Positions 40,984 through 50,952 of a DNA stretch of 64,000 nt are shown here, piece by piece (within the stretch, counting starts at the first letter, position 1; every line of letters starts with the position of its first letter). The notes below the pieces were generated by a model. The model did not search any database. It was not told the DNA's origin and saw nothing but the letters and a program-made list of their open reading frames with translations. The stretch is from an uncultured Pseudomonadota bacterium (GTDB lineage Bacteria > Pseudomonadota > Gammaproteobacteria > Ga0077536). The DNA lies in contig CAIKBL010000064.1 of assembly GCA_903825645.1 (NCBI GenBank), forward strand, positions 62,001 through 126,000. The letters run 5' to 3'. The translations under genes and the position numbers were made by a program.

Positions 40984-42045
40984 GTGGAGACGTCAACTGC
41001 CGATACGCCAGACATCGCGCCCAAGCGCATCGCCATCGTCTCTGATGCGTGGCATCCGCAGGTTAACGGCGTGGTGCGTACGCTTTCGACAACTGTGTTG
41101 CATCTCCGTCGTCTCGGCCACGACGTGCTCCCCATCACGCCGCAACATTTCCGCACGGTGCCCTGCCCCTCCTACCCGAGCATAAGGCTGGCAGTTTGTG
41201 CACGAAATGGCGTGGCGCGTATGCTTGATGACTTCAGACCACACGCGATTCATATCGCGACCGAGGGTCCTTTAGGCCATGCTGCGCGTCACTACTGCCG
41301 CCTCCGACGGCTTCCCTTCACGACCTCTTTTCATACCCAGTTCCCCGAATATATCCGAATGCGGGCACCTATCCCGGTTAGTTGGACCTATCATTACCTT
41401 CGTCATTTCCACCGCAAAGCCGAACGAACACTCGTCCCTACCGCCACGCAGCGCGCGAAGCTCGTCAACCGTGGGTTCGAAAATCTGTGTCTTTGGGCGC
41501 GCGGCGTCGACCTCGACATTTTTAAGCCTGACGATCCCGTCGTCTGGACGTATCCACGGCCCGTGGCCATTTACATGGGGCGGGTCGCTGTGGAAAAAAA
41601 TATTGAGGCATTTCTTGACTTGCCCGAGCCCGCGAGCAAAGTCATCATCGGCGACGGTCCTGATCTCGGCCGGCTAAGGGCACGCTACCCGAACTACCAT
41701 TTTCTCGGCCCCAAGTTCGGACGGGAACTCGCCCGAAATCTGGCCGCAGGCGATGTTTTTGTTTTTCCAAGCCGCACCGACACGTTCGGCTTGGTACTTC
41801 TGGAAGCGATGGCCTGTGGTTTACCCGTCGCCGCCTATCCCGTTCAGGGCCCACTGGATGTGCTTGCAAATGGATCAACCGGGATCCTTGACGAAGATCT
41901 AGCATCCGCAGTGAAAGGCGCCCTTACGCTCTCTCGAGCACGGTGCATCGCGTATGCACAGCACTATTCCTGGGAGGCCTGTACGGCTGATTTCGCCTCC
42001 TATCTGGCGCCCATCCCTGCCACTGCCGGTAGCGCCAGGCACTGA
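40984..42045 (+). CDS. GT4 glycosyltransferase, probable glycolipid synthase
   Basis: A 353-residue retaining glycosyltransferase with GT-B fold. The N-terminal domain opens RIAIVSDAWHPQVNGVVRTL, as in SqdX/MgtA-type lipid mannosyl- or sulfoquinovosyl-transferases. The nucleotide-sugar domain has YMGRVAVEKNIEAFLDL and the catalytic E-x7-E region in SRTDTFGLVLLEAMACG. By position at the edge of the btaAB/plcP/pst island, and by the candidate Pho box, I infer that it adds a sugar to diacylglycerol during phosphate stress, like Agt enzymes known beside PlcP in other Proteobacteria. GTG start. The 3' end overlaps the convergent HAD gene by 46 bp. Confidence 0.8.
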   Translation: METSTADTPDIAPKRIAIVSDAWHPQVNGVVRTLSTTVLHLRRLGHDVLPITPQHFRTVPCPSYPSIRLAVCARNGVARMLDDFRPHAIHIATEGPLGHAARHYCRLRRLPFTTSFHTQFPEYIRMRAPIPVSWTYHYLRHFHRKAERTLVPTATQRAKLVNRGFENLCLWARGVDLDIFKPDDPVVWTYPRPVAIYMGRVAVEKNIEAFLDLPEPASKVIIGDGPDLGRLRARYPNYHFLGPKFGRELARNLAAGDVFVFPSRTDTFGLVLLEAMACGLPVAAYPVQGPLDVLANGSTGILDEDLASAVKGALTLSRARCIAYAQHYSWEACTADFASYLAPIPATAGSARH

Positions 42046-42740
42046 CTCGGGCGCCGCCAAACTTCGTCTTTCTCAATGTACGGCGCCAAGCGCTGCGACA
42101 GCGCGGCGGCCAGCGACTCAGGACTGTCGTAGATGGATTCAGGCGCAACATCCCCGTGCGTGATGAGCCGCTCCCGCGTATCGAATCCATAACTCCCCAT
42201 GAGACTCTCGTAGCCGGTTTCCATAGCCGCGCGATAGTCTCCGATCTCGTCGGCACAAAGAATAGATTCGTAATAACGCGAGGCCGCCATTCCGGCGAGA
42301 ATATCGACTTTTTTCACACCGACAGGAATAGGCAATACGAAATCCAGATCTACCTCATTTATGCCGCTGCGGCGCAGGACGGTTCGGATCGTCGGCCCCG
42401 GCTCAAGTGTGTAGTTTCTACTCAGGATGCCACAATGAATAGTCGGTGTTTCAATCGCGGCATTGATTAGTGAAACATAAGCCGGATAGACGCGGCCGAC
42501 TTCTCTATAATGCTTCGTCAGCTCTGAGCGGAGCCTACGGGTCTTGGGCAGCGTAAAACCCACTAGATTTTTCAGCAGCTCCTTCCCGCCACCAAAATAT
42601 TTCAAGAATTTTCTGCGATTTTTGAAGCGCTCTTCCGCTCCGACATCAAGGCCGAAGGCTCCCATCGCATCTCGAATAAGCGCATAGGAGTTGATCAAAA
42701 ATCCGTCGAAATCGAGCACCAGAAGAAGTCGTTTTTTCAT
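42000..42740 (-). CDS. HAD-superfamily hydrolase
   Basis: A 246-residue haloacid dehalogenase-like protein. Motif I is LDFDGFLINS (nucleophile Asp plus the second Asp); motif II is the Ser in CGILSRN, the conserved Lys is in GVKKVDI, and motif IV acidic residues are in CADEIGDY. The long basic cap (residues 40-100) is Lys/Arg-rich and may contact a membrane or an anionic substrate. Its place beside a probable glycolipid synthase and PlcP suggests phosphate release from a lipid or sugar phosphate, but this is inference from position. Its promoter lies in the AT-rich stretch 42741-42900. Confidence 0.72.
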   Translation of the reverse strand: MKKRLLLVLDFDGFLINSYALIRDAMGAFGLDVGAEERFKNRRKFLKYFGGGKELLKNLVGFTLPKTRRLRSELTKHYREVGRVYPAYVSLINAAIETPTIHCGILSRNYTLEPGPTIRTVLRRSGINEVDLDFVLPIPVGVKKVDILAGMAASRYYESILCADEIGDYRAAMETGYESLMGSYGFDTRERLITHGDVAPESIYDSPESLAAALSQRLAPYIEKDEVWRRPSQCLALPAVAGMGAR

Positions 42741-43003: not shown

Positions 43004-43192
43004 ATGCCTCTGTCCGTACTTTCCGAACACGATGAAACACTAGAAGTTCTCCTCGGCATTCATCGCGACAAGCGTGACAATGTCGTCTGTACCTTCGTAG
43101 ATGCTTCCGGAACAAAAATCTCTCTGCGCATAAATCCACAGGCCGTCGTTGATTTGAAAACCGAGCTTGCCAGACTCATTAAGGAAGGCTAG
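43004..43192 (+). CDS. Small protein of unknown function, 62 residues
   Basis: An acidic-to-neutral soluble protein that opens MPLSVLSEHDETLEVLLG and ends LKTELARLIKEG, with a predicted beta-strand core (VVCTFVDASGTKISLRI). AGGAG lies 7 bases before the ATG, which supports real translation. No family is recognised. It stands alone on the plus strand between the HAD gene and the aminotransferase fusion, both on the minus strand. Confidence 0.6.
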   Translation: MPLSVLSEHDETLEVLLGIHRDKRDNVVCTFVDASGTKISLRINPQAVVDLKTELARLIKEG

Positions 43193-43263: not shown

Positions 43264-45492
43264 TCAAGCAACCCTACGCCCCAGAAGCGTAGGTGAATAC
43301 GCTGAAATATCTGTAATAGGGTCGGTAACGAACTTAACAAACCAGACCATCGCGTCCTTGAAGCCGAATTTTTTCTTCAGACGCACGACGTGACCCAACA
43401 CGACGATGGTAGTGAACACGAGCCACTCGCTCGCTATCGCCTCGAAAATATGCCGAAAGGCAGCGCTATCCAGCGTCGGCGTCATCCCTATGTTGACTAC
43501 CGCGATGATCAAATAGACGGCCACGACTTTTGTTTTACTCTTTGTGTCGAAACCCAGCAATAATTGCTCTTTGTCATGACAAGGTGGCTCAATCAATGCG
43601 TGACCACTTTGCCTAACGAATAAAGCTGCGAGCCCTAACCACATGGCTGTCGTCAAGTCGAAAAAGACCAACCAATAACAATAAATAAACGTGCTCGAAC
43701 TCAACAGATGCAGAAATTGATTGATCCGATTGCTGTGGGATGCGATGTGATCATCATGCTTACGTTGCATCACCTCCCTATAGAATTTTTGCAGCGGGGC
43801 GGGTAGCGACAACAAGCCCGCTAGCAGGTCGCGCGTCACCCCGCGCTTTACATCCTTAGCGCGATTAGGATGCTCCGCTTCAGTGAGCCACCATTTATCT
43901 TTTTGCATATTTTCTGCCGCCGTACGGATTCGGTTGCGAAGATCAAGAAAATCTTCGTCTGTAAAGTCAAAATTAAACATGCAGCGGCCTGTCCCAACCC
44001 AACTGAGGTTGACTCCTTCGGCTCGAAGGTAATACTGCATCAGCCAGTGGTACCTGCCTGGATCGGTGAACTCCATCGTCCAGATTGTCTCTAAGTTTGA
44101 AATCTTTACCGGAAGACCCGCGCGTTCGAATTCACCCGAGGTCTCTCTCGCCCAGTTCGTCGCACGTTCGTTGGCCGCGCGGTACGCCGCCGCTGTAGAA
44201 GGCAGCACCAGCCACTGAAGGAATTCATTCATGGCGCCCATCACATGCGGATGGGCCGAAAAGGTGCCGACTACATACGCCATACGAAGTGGGCGATCGG
44301 GATCGAATCTCCGCATCAGCTCCTTTTTCCCGCAGACGACACCTATCGGCATGCCACCGCCTACCGTTTTACCGTAGACCACCATGTCTGCCCGGGTACC
44401 GAAATAGGCTTGTGCACCGTACGGCGCCAACCGAAAACCACTAAAAACCTCGTCAAAAACGAGCGGCACCCCAACTTCCGAACACACCGCACCTAATTTT
44501 CGTAGCCATGTTGCGTACGGGTTGGTGTCACGCTGGGTCTGTCTGATCCGGTTATTTAAGAGAATCGCATCATTTGGCGGTGGAGAATTAGGGTGAAAGG
44601 ACTGTACGGGGTTAACGAGCACTCCGGCGATGTCTCGCGCCCGTGCGCGAATGAGTGCGAGCGAGGCATCGTTCATGTCCCGAAGCGTCAGGCAATCGTC
44701 AATTGCGCGTTCGCTTCCTAGTCCAGGTTGGACGCCGTCCCACCACCCGTGATAGGCGCCGGAGAAGGTAACGAGGAGTTTTCGCCCGGTGTTGAATCGA
44801 ACAAGCCGCACCGCCGCCATCACAGCCTCGGTACCACTCGCGTGGAACGAAACCTCGTCTTGCCCGGAGATTGCCTGCAGGCGAGACACATTGTCCGCGA
44901 CCACAGGGTGTAGAGGGCCGAGCACCGGACCGAGATCACGCACCCGCTCCCAACCCCGTTCCATCCATATTTTGTATTGATCGTAGCCCGCGACATTGAC
45001 GCCGTATGAGCCGCTGACGTCGAGGTTCCAGTTGCCATCGAGATCTAACAATCGGCTACCCCTACTGGCCGTGGCAACCGTCGCGACGTTAAAGCCCTGA
45101 CGCATGACTTCCGAGAAAGTAAAAGGGACACGGCTCGCGTCGGTAAAGCGTAAATCAGATAGGCCGCCACGAAGTGCGTCAGCCCATTGACTCGAAAGTC
45201 GGGTACGGGCTGCCAGGCGTTCGCGTAATCGATGAAGCGCAGCACGGCGGTTCTCCGCGAACGCCTCCGGCGCGCCGTCAGCGCGGACAAGATAAGCTTC
45301 TGAGGAAGTGCGACTTCGGATCAGCCAGGAGAGAACGCGCGACACCCACGGTGTCCGCGCGTAAGCGCGCAAGGAAAATCGTAGATAACCGAATCGCACG
45401 ATGAGGGCAGCTACCAGCACGCCCAAACCGATTCGCGTGGGAGTCGCCGACACAGCGAATTCTGAGAGTGCAGCGGTTAGCGGAAGCAGCAT
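43264..45492 (-). CDS. Class III aminotransferase fused to an Mpo1/DUF962-like membrane domain
   Basis: A 742-residue fusion. Residues 1-60 hold a membrane segment (GLGVLVAALIVRFGYL). About 120-540 form a class III (glutamate-semialdehyde-aminotransferase-like) PLP domain with Asp347 in FDEVFSGFR and Schiff-base Lys375 in VYGKTVGGG, so it is likely active. From about 570 the protein becomes membrane-bound: H586-x-N-R-x-N-x-x-L-H595 and GHALIE (His631, Glu635) match the Mpo1/DUF962 signature HRNRxNRxLH ... GHxxxEKN, whose yeast member is a Fe(II) dioxygenase of 2-hydroxy fatty acids. Two to three further hydrophobic helices follow. I know no characterised protein with this layout. A Pho box lies 124 bp upstream and btaA is divergent, so I infer a role in membrane-lipid remodelling under phosphate stress. 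Confidence 0.82.
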   Translation of the reverse strand: MLLPLTAALSEFAVSATPTRIGLGVLVAALIVRFGYLRFSLRAYARTPWVSRVLSWLIRSRTSSEAYLVRADGAPEAFAENRRAALHRLRERLAARTRLSSQWADALRGGLSDLRFTDASRVPFTFSEVMRQGFNVATVATASRGSRLLDLDGNWNLDVSGSYGVNVAGYDQYKIWMERGWERVRDLGPVLGPLHPVVADNVSRLQAISGQDEVSFHASGTEAVMAAVRLVRFNTGRKLLVTFSGAYHGWWDGVQPGLGSERAIDDCLTLRDMNDASLALIRARARDIAGVLVNPVQSFHPNSPPPNDAILLNNRIRQTQRDTNPYATWLRKLGAVCSEVGVPLVFDEVFSGFRLAPYGAQAYFGTRADMVVYGKTVGGGMPIGVVCGKKELMRRFDPDRPLRMAYVVGTFSAHPHVMGAMNEFLQWLVLPSTAAAYRAANERATNWARETSGEFERAGLPVKISNLETIWTMEFTDPGRYHWLMQYYLRAEGVNLSWVGTGRCMFNFDFTDEDFLDLRNRIRTAAENMQKDKWWLTEAEHPNRAKDVKRGVTRDLLAGLLSLPAPLQKFYREVMQRKHDDHIASHSNRINQFLHLLSSSTFIYCYWLVFFDLTTAMWLGLAALFVRQSGHALIEPPCHDKEQLLLGFDTKSKTKVVAVYLIIAVVNIGMTPTLDSAAFRHIFEAIASEWLVFTTIVVLGHVVRLKKKFGFKDAMVWFVKFVTDPITDISAYSPTLLGRRVA

Positions 45493-45615: not shown

Positions 45616-45633
45616 ATGAAAATTTAATGAAAA
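45616..45633 (-). promoter_or_regulatory. Pho box facing the aminotransferase fusion gene
   Basis: On the minus strand TTTTCAT-TAAA-TTTTCAT is an exact direct repeat of 7 bases with a 4-bp AT spacer (10 of 14 to consensus). It lies 124 bp upstream of the ATG. No convincing -10 is seen at the ideal spacing (TAGGAC is 5 bp too close). Confidence 0.6.
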
Positions 45634-45771: not shown

Positions 45772-45834
45772 ACGCATTGATTACGGTTCCACCCCGCACG
45801 GCAAACAGAATACGCTCGCCAGAAGGTACATGTC

Positions 45835-47028
45835 CTGAAGCAGAAATTCACACTAAGCGATCGCTTCGACCAAAAAATATTCGACACGATATACGCAAGA
45901 TCGCTTGTTTATAACGCGTGCTGGGAAGACCCCGCCGTGGATCGTGAAGCGCTCGCGCTTTCCGCAGACGACAATGTGATGGTCATTACAAGCGCGGGTT
46001 GTAACGTGCTGGATTACGCCTTGGTCGGTCCGAAAAATGTACATGCGGTTGACGCCAATCCGCGTCAAACGGCGCTCCTCGAACTCAAATTGGCGGGGAT
46101 CCGTAACCTCTGTTATGCGGATTTCTTCCAAATCTTCGGCCAAGGTCAGCATCCCAAGTTCGTGGAGCTTTATCAGGATGTACTGCGCCCAGAACTTTCC
46201 CCATTTGGCCAAAATTTCTGGGATAAACGCGTCTCTTGGTTCTCCGGACAACATGGCGGGTTTTATTTCTTCGGCCTCTCGGGGATGGTAGCTCGTGCCT
46301 TCAGAACATACCTCAGGCTGAGGCCAGCACTCGCGAAACACCTGACGACTCTCTTTGGGGCGCCGACGATGGCGATCCAACGTGAGATATACTGTATGGA
46401 AATTGCCCCACGCATGTGGGGCTCAACCATGAATTGGGCACTATCTAGGCAGATCACGCTCTCGATGCTCGGGGTGCCGCATCCGCAACGGCGCGAGGTA
46501 GTGGCGCAACATCCGGGTGGTGTTGCTGGTTTTGTTCGGGCGTCTCTGGAATATCTTGCGTATCATCTGCCGTTCTCAGAAAACTATTTTTATTCAGTTT
46601 ACGTTCATGGCTCTTATACGCAGACTTGTTGCCCGGAATATCTGAAAAAGGACCAGTTTACCCGACTCAAAACCGGGTTAGTTGACCGAATATCGGCCCA
46701 TACCTGCACGGTCACTGAATTCCTGGAAAGGTCTCGGTGGCAGATCTCTCATTTTGTCCTGCTCGATCATATGGACTGGATGAGCTCGTACTACCCGGAC
46801 GCTCTCGACGCGGAGTGGACTGCCATTCTCGCGCGCGCCGCGCCGCGGGCTCGCATTATATTTAGAAGCGCACATGCCCACCCGAAATATCTCGAGCGCG
46901 TCAGATTGCCCCATGCCGGCTCGTTGCGTGATCTGCTCAGATTTGATGTAGAGACTGCGCAGCGACTCACGCTGAGAGATCGCGTGCACACCTATGCCGG
47001 CTTTCATATCGCAAACGTGGTCGAGTGA
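45835..47028 (+). CDS. btaA: DGTS synthesis protein BtaA (DUF3419), unusual start
   Basis: BtaA transfers the 3-amino-3-carboxypropyl group of S-adenosylmethionine to diacylglycerol, giving diacylglycerylhomoserine, the first step of the phosphorus-free betaine lipid DGTS. Identifying blocks are FDTIYARSLVYNACWEDP, ITSAGCNVLDYAL, VDANPRQTALLELKL and LLDHMDWM. The frame opens after a TGA at 45778-45780, but the only canonical start is a GTG at 45937, which would remove the conserved YNACWEDP block. The best reading is a CTG at 45835, 8 bases after AGAAGG, giving 397 residues. An ATG at 45830 is one base out of frame, so a sequencing indel is the alternative. It is first in the btaA-btaB-plcP operon. 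Confidence 0.88.
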   Translation: MKQKFTLSDRFDQKIFDTIYARSLVYNACWEDPAVDREALALSADDNVMVITSAGCNVLDYALVGPKNVHAVDANPRQTALLELKLAGIRNLCYADFFQIFGQGQHPKFVELYQDVLRPELSPFGQNFWDKRVSWFSGQHGGFYFFGLSGMVARAFRTYLRLRPALAKHLTTLFGAPTMAIQREIYCMEIAPRMWGSTMNWALSRQITLSMLGVPHPQRREVVAQHPGGVAGFVRASLEYLAYHLPFSENYFYSVYVHGSYTQTCCPEYLKKDQFTRLKTGLVDRISAHTCTVTEFLERSRWQISHFVLLDHMDWMSSYYPDALDAEWTAILARAAPRARIIFRSAHAHPKYLERVRLPHAGSLRDLLRFDVETAQRLTLRDRVHTYAGFHIANVVE

Positions 47029-47032
47029 TCTC

Positions 47033-47749
47033 ATGCTTGTGCGTGATCTGGGTACCCTACTTCGCCTTCTTCGAGGTATCCCAACACTAGGAACACATGC
47101 CGAACGGCTTGAAGCCTTTTACGGTCCCCAGGCGAGTAGCTATGATCAATTTCGAGAGCACCTCCTCAAGGGGCGTTCCGAGCTTATCGCCGCGCTCGAC
47201 ATATCGCCCGGAGCCCGAATCGTGGAGCTAGGCGCGGGTACCGGACATAACGTCGAATATTATCGCGAAAAAATCCCAACCCTTGCTGAAGTGACCTTGG
47301 TCGATCTCTGTCCCGCTCTTTTGGCGGAGACACGCCGCAGAACCGCGCATTGGCCAAATGTCCGGGCCGTCGAAGCCGACGCCACCGTCCTAAAGCTCGA
47401 GGGTCCAGTAGATCGTGTCTACTTTTCTTACGCGCTCACCATGATTCCTGACTGGGAAGCTGCGCTGATCAATGCGCTCGACATGCTGTGTCCCGGGGGA
47501 CTACTGGGGGTGTCGGATTTCTACGTCTCCGGCGCCTCGCCGACAGACGGCCTCGTGCAACATGGCGCAATGGCGCGTCGTTTTTGGCCTTGGTGGTTTC
47601 GACACGACGGAGTTCGGCTTTCACCCGATCACCTGGCAATGCTTAGGTCCTACCTGATCCCCTGCTTCCTTAAGGAGGATCTCGCAAGGGTGCCTTACCT
47701 CGGCGGACTCAAGGTTCCCTATTATGTCTTCGTGGGCCGAAAAAAATGA
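47033..47749 (+). CDS. btaB: DGTS N-methyltransferase BtaB
   Basis: A 238-residue SAM-dependent methyltransferase. Motif I is IVELGAGTGHNVEYY, followed by VTLVDLCPALL, VEADATVLKLEG and the family-specific YFSYALTMIPDW with the late VSDFYVSG. Its partner gene is btaA, 4 bp upstream, so I assign BtaB, which trimethylates the homoserine head group to DGTS. The ATG at 47033 fits the BtaB N-terminus; an in-frame ATG 13 codons earlier lies inside btaA. Its stop overlaps the next ATG (ATGA). Confidence 0.9.
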   Translation: MLVRDLGTLLRLLRGIPTLGTHAERLEAFYGPQASSYDQFREHLLKGRSELIAALDISPGARIVELGAGTGHNVEYYREKIPTLAEVTLVDLCPALLAETRRRTAHWPNVRAVEADATVLKLEGPVDRVYFSYALTMIPDWEAALINALDMLCPGGLLGVSDFYVSGASPTDGLVQHGAMARRFWPWWFRHDGVRLSPDHLAMLRSYLIPCFLKEDLARVPYLGGLKVPYYVFVGRKK

Positions 47750-48522
47750 ACACGGACGAGGGCACCAAACGAGTCAGATCTATATTCGTGTCCGACATCC
47801 ATCTCGGAACCCGGGATTGCCAGTCAGCCCGATTGCTCGATTTTTTGCGAGAACATGAAGCCGACTACCTATACTTGGTGGGGGATATTGTGGATTTCTG
47901 GGCGATGAACCGCGGGGTTTACTGGTCGGCCGATCAGAACACCGTGATCCAAAAAATCTTGAAGCGCGCACGCCACGGGACACAAGTAATACTCGTGCCG
48001 GGAAATCATGATGAAATTCTTCGGGAGCACATCGGGGTGTCTTTCGGAGAAATCAGAATCTGCGCGGAGTCCATTCATGTTGGGTCCGATGGCCGTCGCT
48101 ACCTCCTAGTTCACGGAGATGCTTTCGATCAGGTCACGCGTTACCACCGCTGGATCGCCACACTCGGCGACCGAGGCTACTCCGTAGTGATGTGCATGGG
48201 TCGATGGCTATCTTGGTGGCGACGAAGCCTGGGCATCGCCGGACATTGGTCGCTGTCCGGGTTTGTGAAGCGACGCATCAAAACGGCGATTCATTTCATA
48301 GCTGAATTTGAGCAGGCTGCAGTACGACATGCAAGAACAGGCGGCTTTGATGGGATCATCTGCGGCCATATTCATGCAGCTGCCAATAAGGAAATCGACA
48401 ACATCCACTATCTGAATTGTGGTGACTGGGTTGAGAGCTGTACCGCAGTCATCGAGACGCTCGAGGGCCAATTCGAGCTTATTGAGTGGCCCATGTACCC
48501 CGAAATGTTTCTAATCCGCTGA
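47746..48522 (+). CDS. plcP: PlcP-like metallophosphoesterase (phospholipase C-type)
   Basis: A 258-residue calcineurin-like phosphoesterase related to UDP-2,3-diacylglucosamine hydrolases. All metal motifs are present in order: FVSDIHLG, VGDIVDF, PGNHDE, VHGDAFD and CGHIHAA. It begins 4 bp before the btaB stop and so is translationally coupled to a betaine-lipid operon. In Sinorhizobium, the related PlcP cuts phosphatidylcholine to diacylglycerol under phosphate limitation for DGTS synthesis; I infer the same job. An LpxH-type role in lipid A synthesis is the less likely alternative. Confidence 0.85.
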   Translation: MNTDEGTKRVRSIFVSDIHLGTRDCQSARLLDFLREHEADYLYLVGDIVDFWAMNRGVYWSADQNTVIQKILKRARHGTQVILVPGNHDEILREHIGVSFGEIRICAESIHVGSDGRRYLLVHGDAFDQVTRYHRWIATLGDRGYSVVMCMGRWLSWWRRSLGIAGHWSLSGFVKRRIKTAIHFIAEFEQAAVRHARTGGFDGIICGHIHAAANKEIDNIHYLNCGDWVESCTAVIETLEGQFELIEWPMYPEMFLIR

Positions 48523-49319: not shown

Positions 49320-50045
49320 CTAGTCTTCTCGATGTCTCGCATCAAGAGAAAGACGCACGTCCTCCATGGGGACATGGCGGACATCTTTACCTTCGACTAA
49401 GAAAATCGCACTTTCACAGATGTTATCTGCATGATCTCCGATGCGTTCAAAGGCTCGCGCGGCCAAAACCGCATCTAAGACTTCGCGAATATTACGCGGG
49501 TCTTCCATCATATAGGTGATGAGCTGCCGCATAACCGATTCCAGCTCCTTATCAACTTCCGGATCTTCGAGCGCCGCCGCAAGCGCAGCATGCGAATCCA
49601 TCCTGGCAAAGGCGTCAAGCGCCGCACGCAGCATGCGACGGACGTGATATCCCATAGCCAAAACACCTACATAATGGATTCTATGAGGCGCCGTGATGCT
49701 TATATTCATGATGATTCGCGCCACTTTTTTAACTTCATCACCAACTCGCTCGAGGTCGGTGATTATTTTGCCAATGGCGAGAACAAGCCTAAGATCACTG
49801 GCCGCAGGTTGACGGCGCAAGAGGATCCCGGAGCATTCCCTGTCGATCTCCTTTTCCATTTCGTTAACTTTTACGTCATTTGCCGCAATCTGCTCGGCAG
49901 ATTCCAAATCTCTTTTAGATAGAGCGTCGAGAAGCCGAGTCAGCTGATCTTCAACCAACCCCCCCATGGCGAGCACCTTCGAGCGGATATCTTCTAGTTC
50001 TCGGTCAAACTGCTGCGAAATATGATGGGTCCGGGATATAACCAT
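49320..50045 (-). CDS. phoU: Phosphate transport accessory protein PhoU
   Basis: A 241-residue all-helical protein of two PhoU repeats. Each carries the E/DxxxD metal-binding pattern, e.g. IGKIITDLERVGDEVKKVAR and ARAFERIGDHADNICE. It links Pst activity to PhoR and keeps the regulon off in high phosphate. I chose the ATG at 50045 (MVISRTHHISQQFD), 16 bp after pstB stop; longer frames run into pstB. It is the last gene of pstS-pstC-pstA-pstB-phoU. Confidence 0.94.
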   Translation of the reverse strand: MVISRTHHISQQFDRELEDIRSKVLAMGGLVEDQLTRLLDALSKRDLESAEQIAANDVKVNEMEKEIDRECSGILLRRQPAASDLRLVLAIGKIITDLERVGDEVKKVARIIMNISITAPHRIHYVGVLAMGYHVRRMLRAALDAFARMDSHAALAAALEDPEVDKELESVMRQLITYMMEDPRNIREVLDAVLAARAFERIGDHADNICESAIFLVEGKDVRHVPMEDVRLSLDARHRED

Positions 50046-50061
50046 GGGGAGCGCTCCGTCT

Positions 50062-50952
50062 CTAGCCGTAACGGCCAGTGATGTAATCTTCGGTCTGCTT
50101 CTTTCGCGGCGTCGTAAACAGTGACCGGGTATCACCAAATTCGATCAAATCGCCCATGTACATGAATGCCGTGTAATCGGATACTCGAGCCGCCTGCTGC
50201 ATATTATGGGTAACGATGACGATCGTATAATTCTGCTTCAACTCGTACACAAGCTCTTCAATCTTGAGTGTCGATATGGGGTCAAGAGCCGACGCGGGCT
50301 CGTCGAGCAAAAGGACCTCTGGCTCAATGGCAATAGCGCGGGCGATAACCAAGCGCTGCTGCTGACCGCCGGACAACGCGGTCGCGCTTTCTTGAACGCG
50401 GTCTTTTACTTCGTCCCATAACGCGGCAGAGCGCAACGCCTGTTCGACAGCGCGATCGAGCACGCGACGATTGTTAATGCCTTGAATGCGCAAGCCGTAC
50501 GCGACGTTCTCATATATCGATTTCGGGAACGGATTCGGTTTCTGGAAGACCATCCCTACCCGACGACGCAGATTTGCGACGTTAACAGAAGGGGCGAGAA
50601 TGTTTTCGCCCTTTAACGTGATCTCGCCTTCGGTACGGACACCCCCGATCAACTCGTTGAGACGATTGAAGCAGCGCAATAAAGTCGATTTTCCACAGCC
50701 ACTTGGACCGATAAAAGCGGTCACCTGCTTTTCGGGGATCGTCATGTTGATACCATTCAGGGCACGTTTTTCTCCGTAATACAAAAATAAATTATTCACC
50801 CGGAACGATTCGGTTTGCATGGCGTCCTGCACATTGTCTAACGGCATCTCAAGGGGGACGGCGCGATGACTGATCTGCTTTTCCTCCATGGTGCCCGAGA
50901 TTTCCCCCGGCGCGTCTATTTCAATGTTCGGATCTTTAATGGTCTGCTGCAT
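50062..50952 (-). CDS. pstB: Phosphate ABC transporter ATPase
   Basis: A 296-residue ABC ATPase. Walker A is GPSGCGKST, the Q-loop [21 protein letters not shown] is PstB-specific, the signature is LSGGQQQR, Walker [13 protein letters not shown], and the H-loop THN. It has a 40-residue N-terminal extension compared with E. coli PstB. The start overlaps the end of pstA by 17 bp. Confidence 0.96.

What the first reader, a model, noticed from the sequence alone, without database searches (positions are those of the whole stretch)
43264..45492. Undescribed fusion: class III aminotransferase plus Mpo1/DUF962-like membrane domain
The PLP domain keeps Lys375 and Asp347, and the C-terminal membrane part keeps H586-x-N-R-x-N-x-x-L-H595 and His631/Glu635 of the Mpo1 family, whose yeast member oxidises 2-hydroxy fatty acids. 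I know of no characterised protein joining these. Divergence from btaA and its own Pho box point to a lipid substrate, e.g. an amino-lipid head group or an amine made from an oxidised acyl chain. The reaction is unknown.
Basis: partly seen in the sequence, partly recalled or inferred. Interest (0 to 1): 0.85.

Follow-up and report, generated by a model that had tools for sequence, protein, structure and literature searches.

The report
Phosphate-stress lipid aminotransferase–oxygenase fusion
A single bacterial membrane protein joins an amine-adding enzyme to a small membrane domain distantly related to a fatty-acid oxygenase; relatives in several bacterial phyla keep the two parts side by side among genes for replacing phospholipids when phosphate is scarce, so it probably helps make an undescribed nitrogen-containing membrane lipid.

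Summary
The 742-aa gene is real (minus strand, 43264-45492): an N-terminal membrane helix, a class III PLP aminotransferase domain (AT; Lys375 and Asp347 in 87 of 87 rows) and a five-helix C-terminal membrane domain. That domain alone is a twilight Mpo1/PF06127 match (13.3 bits, cut-off 24) but is clearly homologous to a standalone ~200-aa subfamily. Fused proteins form one clade, including Nitrospira, Binatota and Rokubacteria records. In the sister clade the parts are neighbouring genes: 37 of 37 loci with full flanks carry the Mpo1-like gene and a divergent phosphatidylserine decarboxylase (PSD2), 33 a GT4 glycosyltransferase. In 369 genomes of the class, AT and the Mpo1-like subfamily occur in the same 10. 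Pho-box-like sites are enriched upstream. The lipid and phosphate reading holds, independent of btaAB. The closest solved relative is the mycosubtilin-synthase aminotransferase domain. Best explanation: the pair makes or tailors an amine-bearing lipid during phosphate-stress remodelling; the reaction itself is not shown. Ten searches of open-access papers found no description of this module.

The parts
43264..45492 (-). AT-Mpo1-like fusion protein, 742 aa
   Evidence: Shine-Dalgarno-like AGGAG before the ATG
45364..45447 (-). N-terminal membrane helix (residues 16-43)
   Evidence: AlphaFold helix 16-43; hydropathy peak
43951..45090 (-). Class III PLP aminotransferase domain (residues 135-514)
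   Evidence: PF00202 96.1 bits; best solved match MycA AMT 6kfm
44368..44370 (-). Codon of PLP lysine Lys375
   Evidence: Lys in 87 of 87 rows
43285..43800 (-). Mpo1-like five-helix membrane domain (residues 565-736) with His582, His586, His595, His631 and Glu635
   Evidence: PF06127 E 0.092; profile of the standalone subfamily hits it at E 8.2e-25; invariants; model
45616..45633 (-). Degenerate Pho-box-like pair TTTTCAT-N4-TTTTCAT, 124 bases before the ATG
   Evidence: 4.3% of shuffles as good; family-wide enrichment
45937..47028 (+). btaA (DUF3419), divergent neighbour; frame is open upstream of the called start
   Evidence: PF11899 345.6 bits
46994..47749 (+). btaB-like methyltransferase
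   Evidence: PF13649 51 bits; the name btaB is by context
47746..48522 (+). PlcP-like calcineurin-type phosphoesterase
   Evidence: PF00149 50.7 bits; the name PlcP is by context with btaAB and GT4, not tested against a validated PlcP
42000..42740 (-). Conserved protein with a HAD-like DFDG motif; among the loci searched found only with close fused relatives
   Evidence: Hits in L012, L013, L014, L026 (L012 and L026 are one genome); no Pfam hit at E <= 1; motif name recalled
40984..42045 (+). GT4 glycosyltransferase (Agt-like by context)
   Evidence: PF13692 and PF13439; a GT4 within 7 kb in 11 of 11 fused loci
49320..50138 (-). phoU, followed upstream by pst-like transporter genes
   Evidence: PF01895 129.8 bits; the pst genes by reading the ORFs

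Best explanation
The protein is a membrane-anchored enzyme of phosphate-starvation lipid remodelling. SHOWN by comparison: the AT and Mpo1-like parts are partners, either fused or as neighbouring genes; the family sits with GT4 glycosyltransferases, often a PlcP-like phosphoesterase and, when unfused, a divergent PSD and sometimes a PmtA-like methyltransferase; its genes tend to have Pho-box-like sites. INFERRED: the two domains act on the same membrane lipid in sequence. The Mpo1-like domain, with its conserved histidines as a metal site, oxidises an alpha-hydroxy-acid-type or comparable group on a lipid to a carbonyl, and the PLP domain transfers an amino group from an amino acid to that carbonyl. 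The result is a lipid bearing an amine that supplements glycolipids or betaine lipids when phospholipids are cut down. In unfused systems PSD2 and the methyltransferase tailor the same or a parallel head group. Whether the amine ends up on a head group or, as in mycosubtilin, on the acyl chain is open.
For: The same 10 of 369 class genomes carry AT (E <= 1e-120) and the Mpo1-like subfamily (E <= 1e-6); the PSD2 profile (E <= 1e-60) hits 7 of 369, all among the 8 unfused AT genomes. Among the 80 best loci, 69 are unfused; of 37 with at least 4.5 kb on both sides 37 have the Mpo1-like gene, 37 a PSD (lowest score 284 bits, against at most 120 for housekeeping copies), 33 a GT4, 8 the PmtA-like gene; 11 fused: 11 GT4, 7 PlcP-like, 3 btaAB. 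Genomes with unfused AT have two PF02666 genes (9 of 9), fused ones one (7 of 7; one of 17 handles was not held). Four-gene operons AT-(900-aa GT4 protein)-PSD2-Mpo1-like, with spacings from a 4-base overlap to 67 bases. PlcP-like in 19 of 24 genomes against 96 of 339 in the class. Pho-box-like sites 30 of 90 against 18 of 130 controls. Closest solved fold MycA AMT, Z 34.5 against 31.3 for the next family. One methyltransferase tested: NF045882 PmtA 161.9 bits, below its cut-off 390.
Against: No substrate, product or expression datum. The Mpo1 relation is remote: hhalign 2 to 85% probability depending on the alignments, 31%, and no solved fold matches the standalone model at E <= 0.001. PSD2 is absent from the fused genomes tested, so the pathway is not uniform; G120 is unfused and lacks it. 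Four of 37 full-flank unfused loci have no GT4 or PlcP-like gene in reach. Only 3 of those 37 have the PlcP-like gene within 7 kb. GT4 is a large superfamily, so some counted neighbours may be unrelated. The 80 loci are the best of 569 and overlap with the class genomes (for example L026 is G002, L042 is G080). The Pho-box test uses a recalled consensus and mechanically called control ORFs; in 5 of 9 other fused upstream regions the best site was not better than 5% of shuffles.
Confidence: 0.5

Rival explanations
1. Acyl-chain amination: the AT aminates a beta-keto (or other oxo) fatty acyl chain, as the MycA AMT domain does, and the Mpo1-like part trims or oxidises the acyl chain; the product is a lipid with a beta-amino or long-chain-amine moiety.
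For: MycA AMT is the nearest solved relative by sequence (phmmer 1.5e-47 against 3.5e-32 for the best GSAM; profile 7.3e-67 against 1.4e-46) and by fold. A paper describes MycA as placing an amino group on the beta position of the fatty acid (PMC4219810, passages). By recall, yeast Mpo1 acts on a 2-hydroxy fatty acid.
Against: Among the 28 most recurrent neighbour clusters that one search printed I recognised no acyl carrier protein, acyl ligase or ketosynthase (by reading). PSD2, the PmtA-like enzyme and BtaB are head-group enzymes by family. MycA works within a PKS/NRPS; this protein is membrane anchored.
Confidence: 0.22
2. Head-group removal or salvage: the PLP domain deaminates or eliminates the ethanolamine or serine head group of a phospholipid (or the phosphoethanolamine freed by PlcP), recovering phosphate or nitrogen rather than building a lipid.
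For: Class III enzymes include an ethanolamine-phosphate phospho-lyase (recalled). PlcP-like and PSD2 neighbours handle such head groups by family.
Against: The nearest relatives by profile are AMT and GSAM types. Arg503, which by recall resembles the carboxylate-binding arginine of GABA transaminases, is present in 87 of 87 rows, as expected for an amino-acid donor. It does not explain the Mpo1-like partner.
Confidence: 0.12
3. Aminoglycolipid: the GT4 enzyme makes glucuronosyl- or glucosyl-diacylglycerol, the Mpo1-like oxygenase oxidises the sugar, whose uronic acid is an alpha-hydroxy acid, and the AT aminates it to a basic sugar lipid.
For: A GT4 lies within 7 kb in 11 of 11 fused and 33 of 37 full-flank unfused loci and directly precedes or follows AT on the same strand in several. 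A SAR11 GT4 makes glucosyl-, galactosyl- and glucuronosyl-diacylglycerol (PMC8231724, abstract). Class III C-6' sugar aminotransferases are among the relatives (77.7 bits).
Against: Pure inference on the chemistry. It gives PSD2 no natural role. GT4 genes are common beside plcP in clusters for which no AT is mentioned (PMC4796936 section 13).
Confidence: 0.12
4. Ordinary glutamate-1-semialdehyde aminomutase (HemL) or other soluble-metabolite transaminase that happens to carry a membrane domain.
For: NCBIfam best hits are GSAM models.
Against: Far below the GSAM cut-offs shown (153.3 against 398; 151.4 against 527.3), membrane anchor, and lipid context.
Confidence: 0.03

Closest known systems
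MycA aminotransferase (AMT) domain of mycosubtilin synthase (PDB 6kfm, 6kfr, 6kfu)
   Same: Closest solved relative by sequence and fold, aligned from about residue 69 to 535; the PLP lysine aligns
   Different: 27-30% identity; part of a PKS/NRPS; the solved chains carry no Mpo1-like part
Mpo1-like family PF06127 (DUF962)
   Same: His-x4-Asn-(2 or 3)-His and Gly-His-x3-Glu motifs, by eye; one standalone module member scores 24.7 bits, cut-off 24
   Different: The fused domain scores 13.3 bits; the subfamily has a conserved C-terminal T-D-P-x2-D block and occurred only in AT genomes among the 369 scanned
plcP-agt-btaAB phosphate-stress lipid remodelling clusters
   Same: Same kinds of phosphoesterase and GT4 neighbours, Pho-box-like sites, btaAB in the window itself
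   Different: The main-text account of six cluster types in PMC4796936 (section 13, read in full; its supplement not seen) mentions no aminotransferase, PSD or Mpo1-like gene
Glutamate-1-semialdehyde aminomutase (HemL)
   Same: Class III fold, next best relatives
   Different: Far under the HemL cut-offs shown

Membership tests
Class III aminotransferase, PF00202 | Score over Pfam's cut-off | tested here: met
   96.1 bits against 30.5, residues 135-514
Class III aminotransferase, PF00202 | PLP lysine and cofactor aspartate | tested here: met
   Lys375 and Asp347 in 87 of 87 rows; their roles are from general knowledge of the family
Class III aminotransferase, PF00202 | Transaminase activity | not testable with these tools
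   Needs purified protein
Mpo1-like, PF06127 | Protein itself over Pfam's cut-off | tested here: not met
   13.3 bits against 24, E 0.092; none at E <= 0.001 in the own genome
Mpo1-like, PF06127 | Standalone homologues of the domain over the cut-off | tested here: inconclusive
   18.5, 19.3 and 20.6 bits for three; 24.7 for L211; profile-profile 2 to 85% in nine comparisons, controls with the reversed alignment 0.13 to 0.30%; 31%
Mpo1-like, PF06127 | Conserved His/Asn/Glu residues | tested here: met
   H586, N591, H595, H631, E635 in 14 of 14 fused and 63 of 63 standalone; correspondence with ordinary members by eye
Mpo1-like, PF06127 | Fe(II)-dependent oxidation of a 2-hydroxy fatty acid | not testable with these tools
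   Recalled for yeast Mpo1 only; the listings showed no paper on it
Mpo1-like, PF06127 | Shared fold | tested here: inconclusive
   Standalone model has no match at E <= 0.001 in PDB or viral models; I know of no solved Mpo1 to compare with
Glutamate-1-semialdehyde aminomutase (TIGR00713, NF000818) | Score over the curated cut-off | tested here: not met
   151.4 against 527.3 and 153.3 against 398
MycA-type AMT domain | Best match in sequence and fold | tested here: met
MycA-type AMT domain | Embedded in a PKS/NRPS with a carrier protein | tested here: not met
   742-aa protein without other Pfam domains, in lipid clusters
Phosphate-stress lipid remodelling cluster | PlcP-like, lipid GT4 and/or btaAB neighbours | tested here: met
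   Window; GT4 in 11 of 11 fused loci, PlcP-like in 7, btaAB in 3
Phosphate-stress lipid remodelling cluster | Pho regulation | tested here: inconclusive
   Degenerate site in the window; enrichment 30 of 90 against 18 of 130, Fisher p 5.7e-4; no expression data

The most novel reading that the evidence does not exclude
A so far undescribed aminolipid pathway, alternative or additional to ornithine, glutamine and betaine lipids, used by Nitrospira, Binatota, Rokubacteria and many Proteobacteria under phosphate stress: an Mpo1-type oxygenase and an AMT-type transaminase act consecutively, in one polypeptide or as partners, to create an amine on a membrane lipid (possibly on glucuronosyl-diacylglycerol made by the neighbouring GT4), which PSD2 and a PmtA-like enzyme tailor in the unfused systems.
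Probability: 0.3. Interest if true: 0.88.

Novelty: new variant of a known kind. Interest (0 to 1): 0.72.

Why it matters
Replacement of phospholipids under phosphate limitation shapes phosphorus budgets in soils, groundwater and fresh water, and the known surrogate lipids are glycolipids, betaine lipids and amino-acid lipids. A conserved AT/Mpo1-like pair with its own divergent PSD in several phyla, including nitrite-oxidising Nitrospira, would mean one more surrogate lipid is being missed in lipidomes. The natural fusion and the four-gene operon name the exact genes to delete or express, so the question is directly testable. It would also give a bacterial function to a branch near the Mpo1-like family.

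Tried and rejected
Rejected: (1) dependence on btaAB: PF11899 in only 5 of 16 AT genomes. (2) HemL: the GSAM cut-offs are missed widely. (3) Viral origin: one scan of viral contigs with close-relative patterns found no relative; in plasmids 7 records at E <= 1e-30, one close, on a Sphingomonas replicon. (4) A sphingolipid function: the Sphingomonas locus lies near genes that look like ceramide genes, but queries with three of them hit no other of the loci searched, whose flanks are at most about 10 kb. (5) Fold of the Mpo1-like domain alone: no match at E <= 0.001 in PDB or viral models; this does not show that the fold is new. (6) Chance adjacency: see the counts.

Rows dropped and recounts: the AT tree and the conservation count left out 13 loci (fragments, duplicates and some short-flank extras) and still hold one identical pair (L042 and L114, one contig). 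My first Pho-box count (30 of 84 against 16 of 121, Fisher 1.5e-4) held that pair too; on checking I repeated it with duplicates removed by shared 14-mers (30 of 90 against 18 of 130, Fisher 5.7e-4, Mann-Whitney 2.4e-5) and report that. The Mpo1 count used 63 of 75 standalone genes (190-260 aa; three loci left out). One of 17 handles was not held. Near-duplicate species remain among the 80 loci.

Papers: PMC4796936 section 13 in full and passages; PMC8231724 abstract and outline; PMC9239053 and PMC4219810 passages; others only as search listings; no supplement was seen. 'Not in print' rests on ten searches of open-access papers; subscription papers are not covered.
Full report
1. The observation. 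The ORF at 43264-45492 lies on the minus strand and encodes 742 aa; the plus frame is broken by stops. An AGGAG stands before the ATG. Pfam finds PF00202 (class III aminotransferase) at 96.1 bits over residues 135-514 and, far under its cut-off, PF06127 Mpo1-like at 13.3 bits (cut-off 24) over 582-635. The AlphaFold model (mean pLDDT 85.7, pTM 0.80) has a long N-terminal helix (16-43), the PLP fold, and five long helices between 565 and 736 (565-585, 589-608, 613-634, 650-670 and 676-709 with 711-736 as its continuation or a sixth).

2. What the C-terminal domain is. Many relatives have a shorter AT of about 550 aa and, next to it, a separate gene of about 200 aa that aligns with the fused C-terminus at about 31% identity. 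A profile of these standalone proteins finds the fused domain at E 8.2e-25 in the own genome, and the two profiles align over 183 columns at 99.8% probability. Thirty-two positions are kept in at least 92% of both sets, all but two of them in 14 of 14 fused and 63 of 63 standalone proteins, among them D580, D581, H582, H586, N591, Q592, H595, R627, H631, E635 and D640. The link to PF06127 is weaker: 18.5, 19.3 and 20.6 bits for three standalone members, 24.7 bits (over the cut-off) for one. Nine profile comparisons against ordinary members gave 2 to 85% probability, highest with the two types of ordinary member combined; the reversed alignment gave 0.13 to 0.30%; an earlier comparison gave 31% over 29 columns. 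In G408 (a Bradyrhizobium record, L104) ordinary PF06127 hits and the module copy occur in the same genome, the module copy with a much lower score. I call the domain Mpo1-like; the Mpo1 reaction is not implied. The standalone model (pLDDT 87.7) has no match in the PDB or viral models at E <= 0.001.

3. What the AT domain is. The nearest solved protein is the AMT domain of mycosubtilin synthase MycA: phmmer 1.5e-47 against 3.5e-32 for the best GSAM, profile 7.3e-67 against 1.4e-46, Foldseek rank 1, VIA Z 34.5 at 2.4 A over 423 residues against 31.3 for the next family. It misses the GSAM cut-offs widely. Lys375, Asp347, Arg354, Trp250, Trp251, Trp498 and Arg503 are present in 87 of 87 rows, 86 of them different. 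A paper describes MycA as placing an amino group on the beta position of the fatty acid (PMC4219810, passages).

4. Distribution and the module. Of the 37 unfused loci with at least 4.5 kb on both sides, 37 have the Mpo1-like gene and 37 a PSD within 7 kb, 33 a GT4 (5 of these as a larger protein with an extra N-terminal domain), 8 a PmtA-like gene, 3 a PlcP-like gene; four have neither GT4 nor PlcP-like gene in reach. The 11 fused loci have GT4 (11), PlcP-like (7) and BtaAB (3), and no PSD within 7 kb of DNA held (two have under 1 kb on one side). The PSDs of the 37 score at least 284 bits against the module query, housekeeping copies at most 120. GT4 is a large superfamily and some counted neighbours may be unrelated. 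In Nitrospira moscoviensis the PlcP-like gene and the fusion are consecutive on one strand. On the AT tree the 14 fused proteins are one clade beside the 73 unfused (SH-aLRT 96 each; one change; quick tree with a distant outgroup). Record titles in the fused clade name Nitrospira, Binatia, Rokubacteria, Deltaproteobacteria, Desulfurellaceae, a proteobacterium and, doubtfully, Bordetella.

5. Genome counts. In 369 genomes of the class the AT (E <= 1e-120) is in 10 and the Mpo1-like subfamily (E <= 1e-6) in the same 10. The module PSD (E <= 1e-60) is in 7, all among the 8 unfused AT genomes; G120 and the two fused genomes lack it. In 16 AT genomes PF02666 occurs twice in 9 of 9 unfused and once in 7 of 7 fused genomes (a 17th handle was not held). 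In a quick tree the module PSDs part from nine housekeeping copies (support 1.00; short-type copies not included) and keep the G-S-T processing site in 12 of 12 aligned. One module PSD scores 171.8 against a cut-off of 111.75 for TIGR00163. BtaA is in 5 of 16, one of them weak. In another class, 3 of 289 genomes, the centre included, have the AT. PlcP-like proteins are in 96 of 339 class genomes, in 8 of the 10 AT genomes of the class and in 19 of 24 genomes tested because of the module (one copy, in G007, is broken; for G839 the AT was not checked). Of the five without it, G080, G220 and G767 have an operon AT - 900-aa GT4 protein - PSD2 - Mpo1-like (G220 split over two contigs), G839 was not inspected, and G410 (L033) has a divergent metallophosphoesterase beside the AT. 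The N-terminal part of the 900-aa protein looks to me like a PHP phosphoesterase by its His/Asp motifs, but Pfam shows only the GT4 domains; if right, it would stand in for PlcP.

6. Phosphate control. In the window the AT faces btaA; btaB, a PlcP-like gene, phoU and pst-like genes follow. A degenerate Pho-box pair lies 124 bases upstream of the ATG (4.3% of shuffles as good). Of nine other fused upstream regions four have a site at p <= 0.05 (L013, L031, L032, L034) and five do not (L012, L014, L028, L030, L035). Over 90 non-redundant AT genes, 30 have a site at p <= 0.05 against 18 of 130 control ORF starts from the same loci (Fisher p 5.7e-4; Mann-Whitney p 2.4e-5; first count). Two thirds of the genes show no such site. 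The consensus is recalled and the controls are mechanical ORFs.

7. Mechanism. Shown: the two parts travel together, fused or adjacent, with lipid remodelling genes. Known from the literature: PlcP and Agt-type GT4 go with glycolipids, and btaAB with betaine lipids, under phosphate stress (PMC4796936 section 13; PMC8231724 abstract). Inferred: the oxygenase-like domain creates a carbonyl on a lipid and the AT aminates it; PSD2 and the PmtA-like enzyme (one tested: NF045882 161.9 bits, cut-off 390), both head-group enzymes by family, point to a head group, the MycA relationship to an acyl chain. I put 0.5 on an amine-bearing lipid made by consecutive action of the two domains, with the site of the amine open.

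8. Novelty. Ten searches of open-access papers found no account of this module. The parts are known kinds; the stable pairing, the fusion clade and the dedicated divergent PSD look new.

Noticed in passing
L042:11764-14472 (same contig as L226:6844-9552), L040, L044, L087, L232:2344-5025: About 900-aa proteins with a C-terminal GT4 and an N-terminal domain with PHP-like His/Asp motifs (my reading; no Pfam hit) sit in the AT-PSD2-Mpo1-like operon; three genomes with this operon (G080, G220, G767) lack a PlcP-like gene.
   Followed up: partly
window 45780-45937: The btaA frame stays open upstream of the called GTG at 45937 with no ATG, GTG or TTG, though relatives read similarly there; the true start may be a rarer codon such as CTG 45835.
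   Followed up: partly
window 42000-42740: A protein with a HAD-like DFDG motif and no Pfam hit at E <= 1 lies between the AT and the GT4 in the close fused relatives.
   Followed up: partly
L022 (Sphingomonas parapaucimobilis plasmid NZ_CP155753.1): PSD, AT, an unannotated Mpo1-like gene and a methyltransferase lie within about 14 kb of a class I/II aminotransferase, an acyl carrier protein and an N-acetyltransferase that look like ceramide genes.
   Followed up: partly
L027, L051, L052, L068: Records titled Bordetella parapertussis are metagenome-assembled genomes whose AT proteins fall in different parts of the tree among environmental Proteobacteria; the titles look wrong.
   Followed up: no
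L102, L078 and seven more loci: A membrane protein resembling a lysophospholipid transporter (LplT, by reading) recurs near the module in nine loci.
   Followed up: no
window 43004-43192 (+): A 62-aa ORF convergent with the fusion gene; unknown.
   Followed up: no
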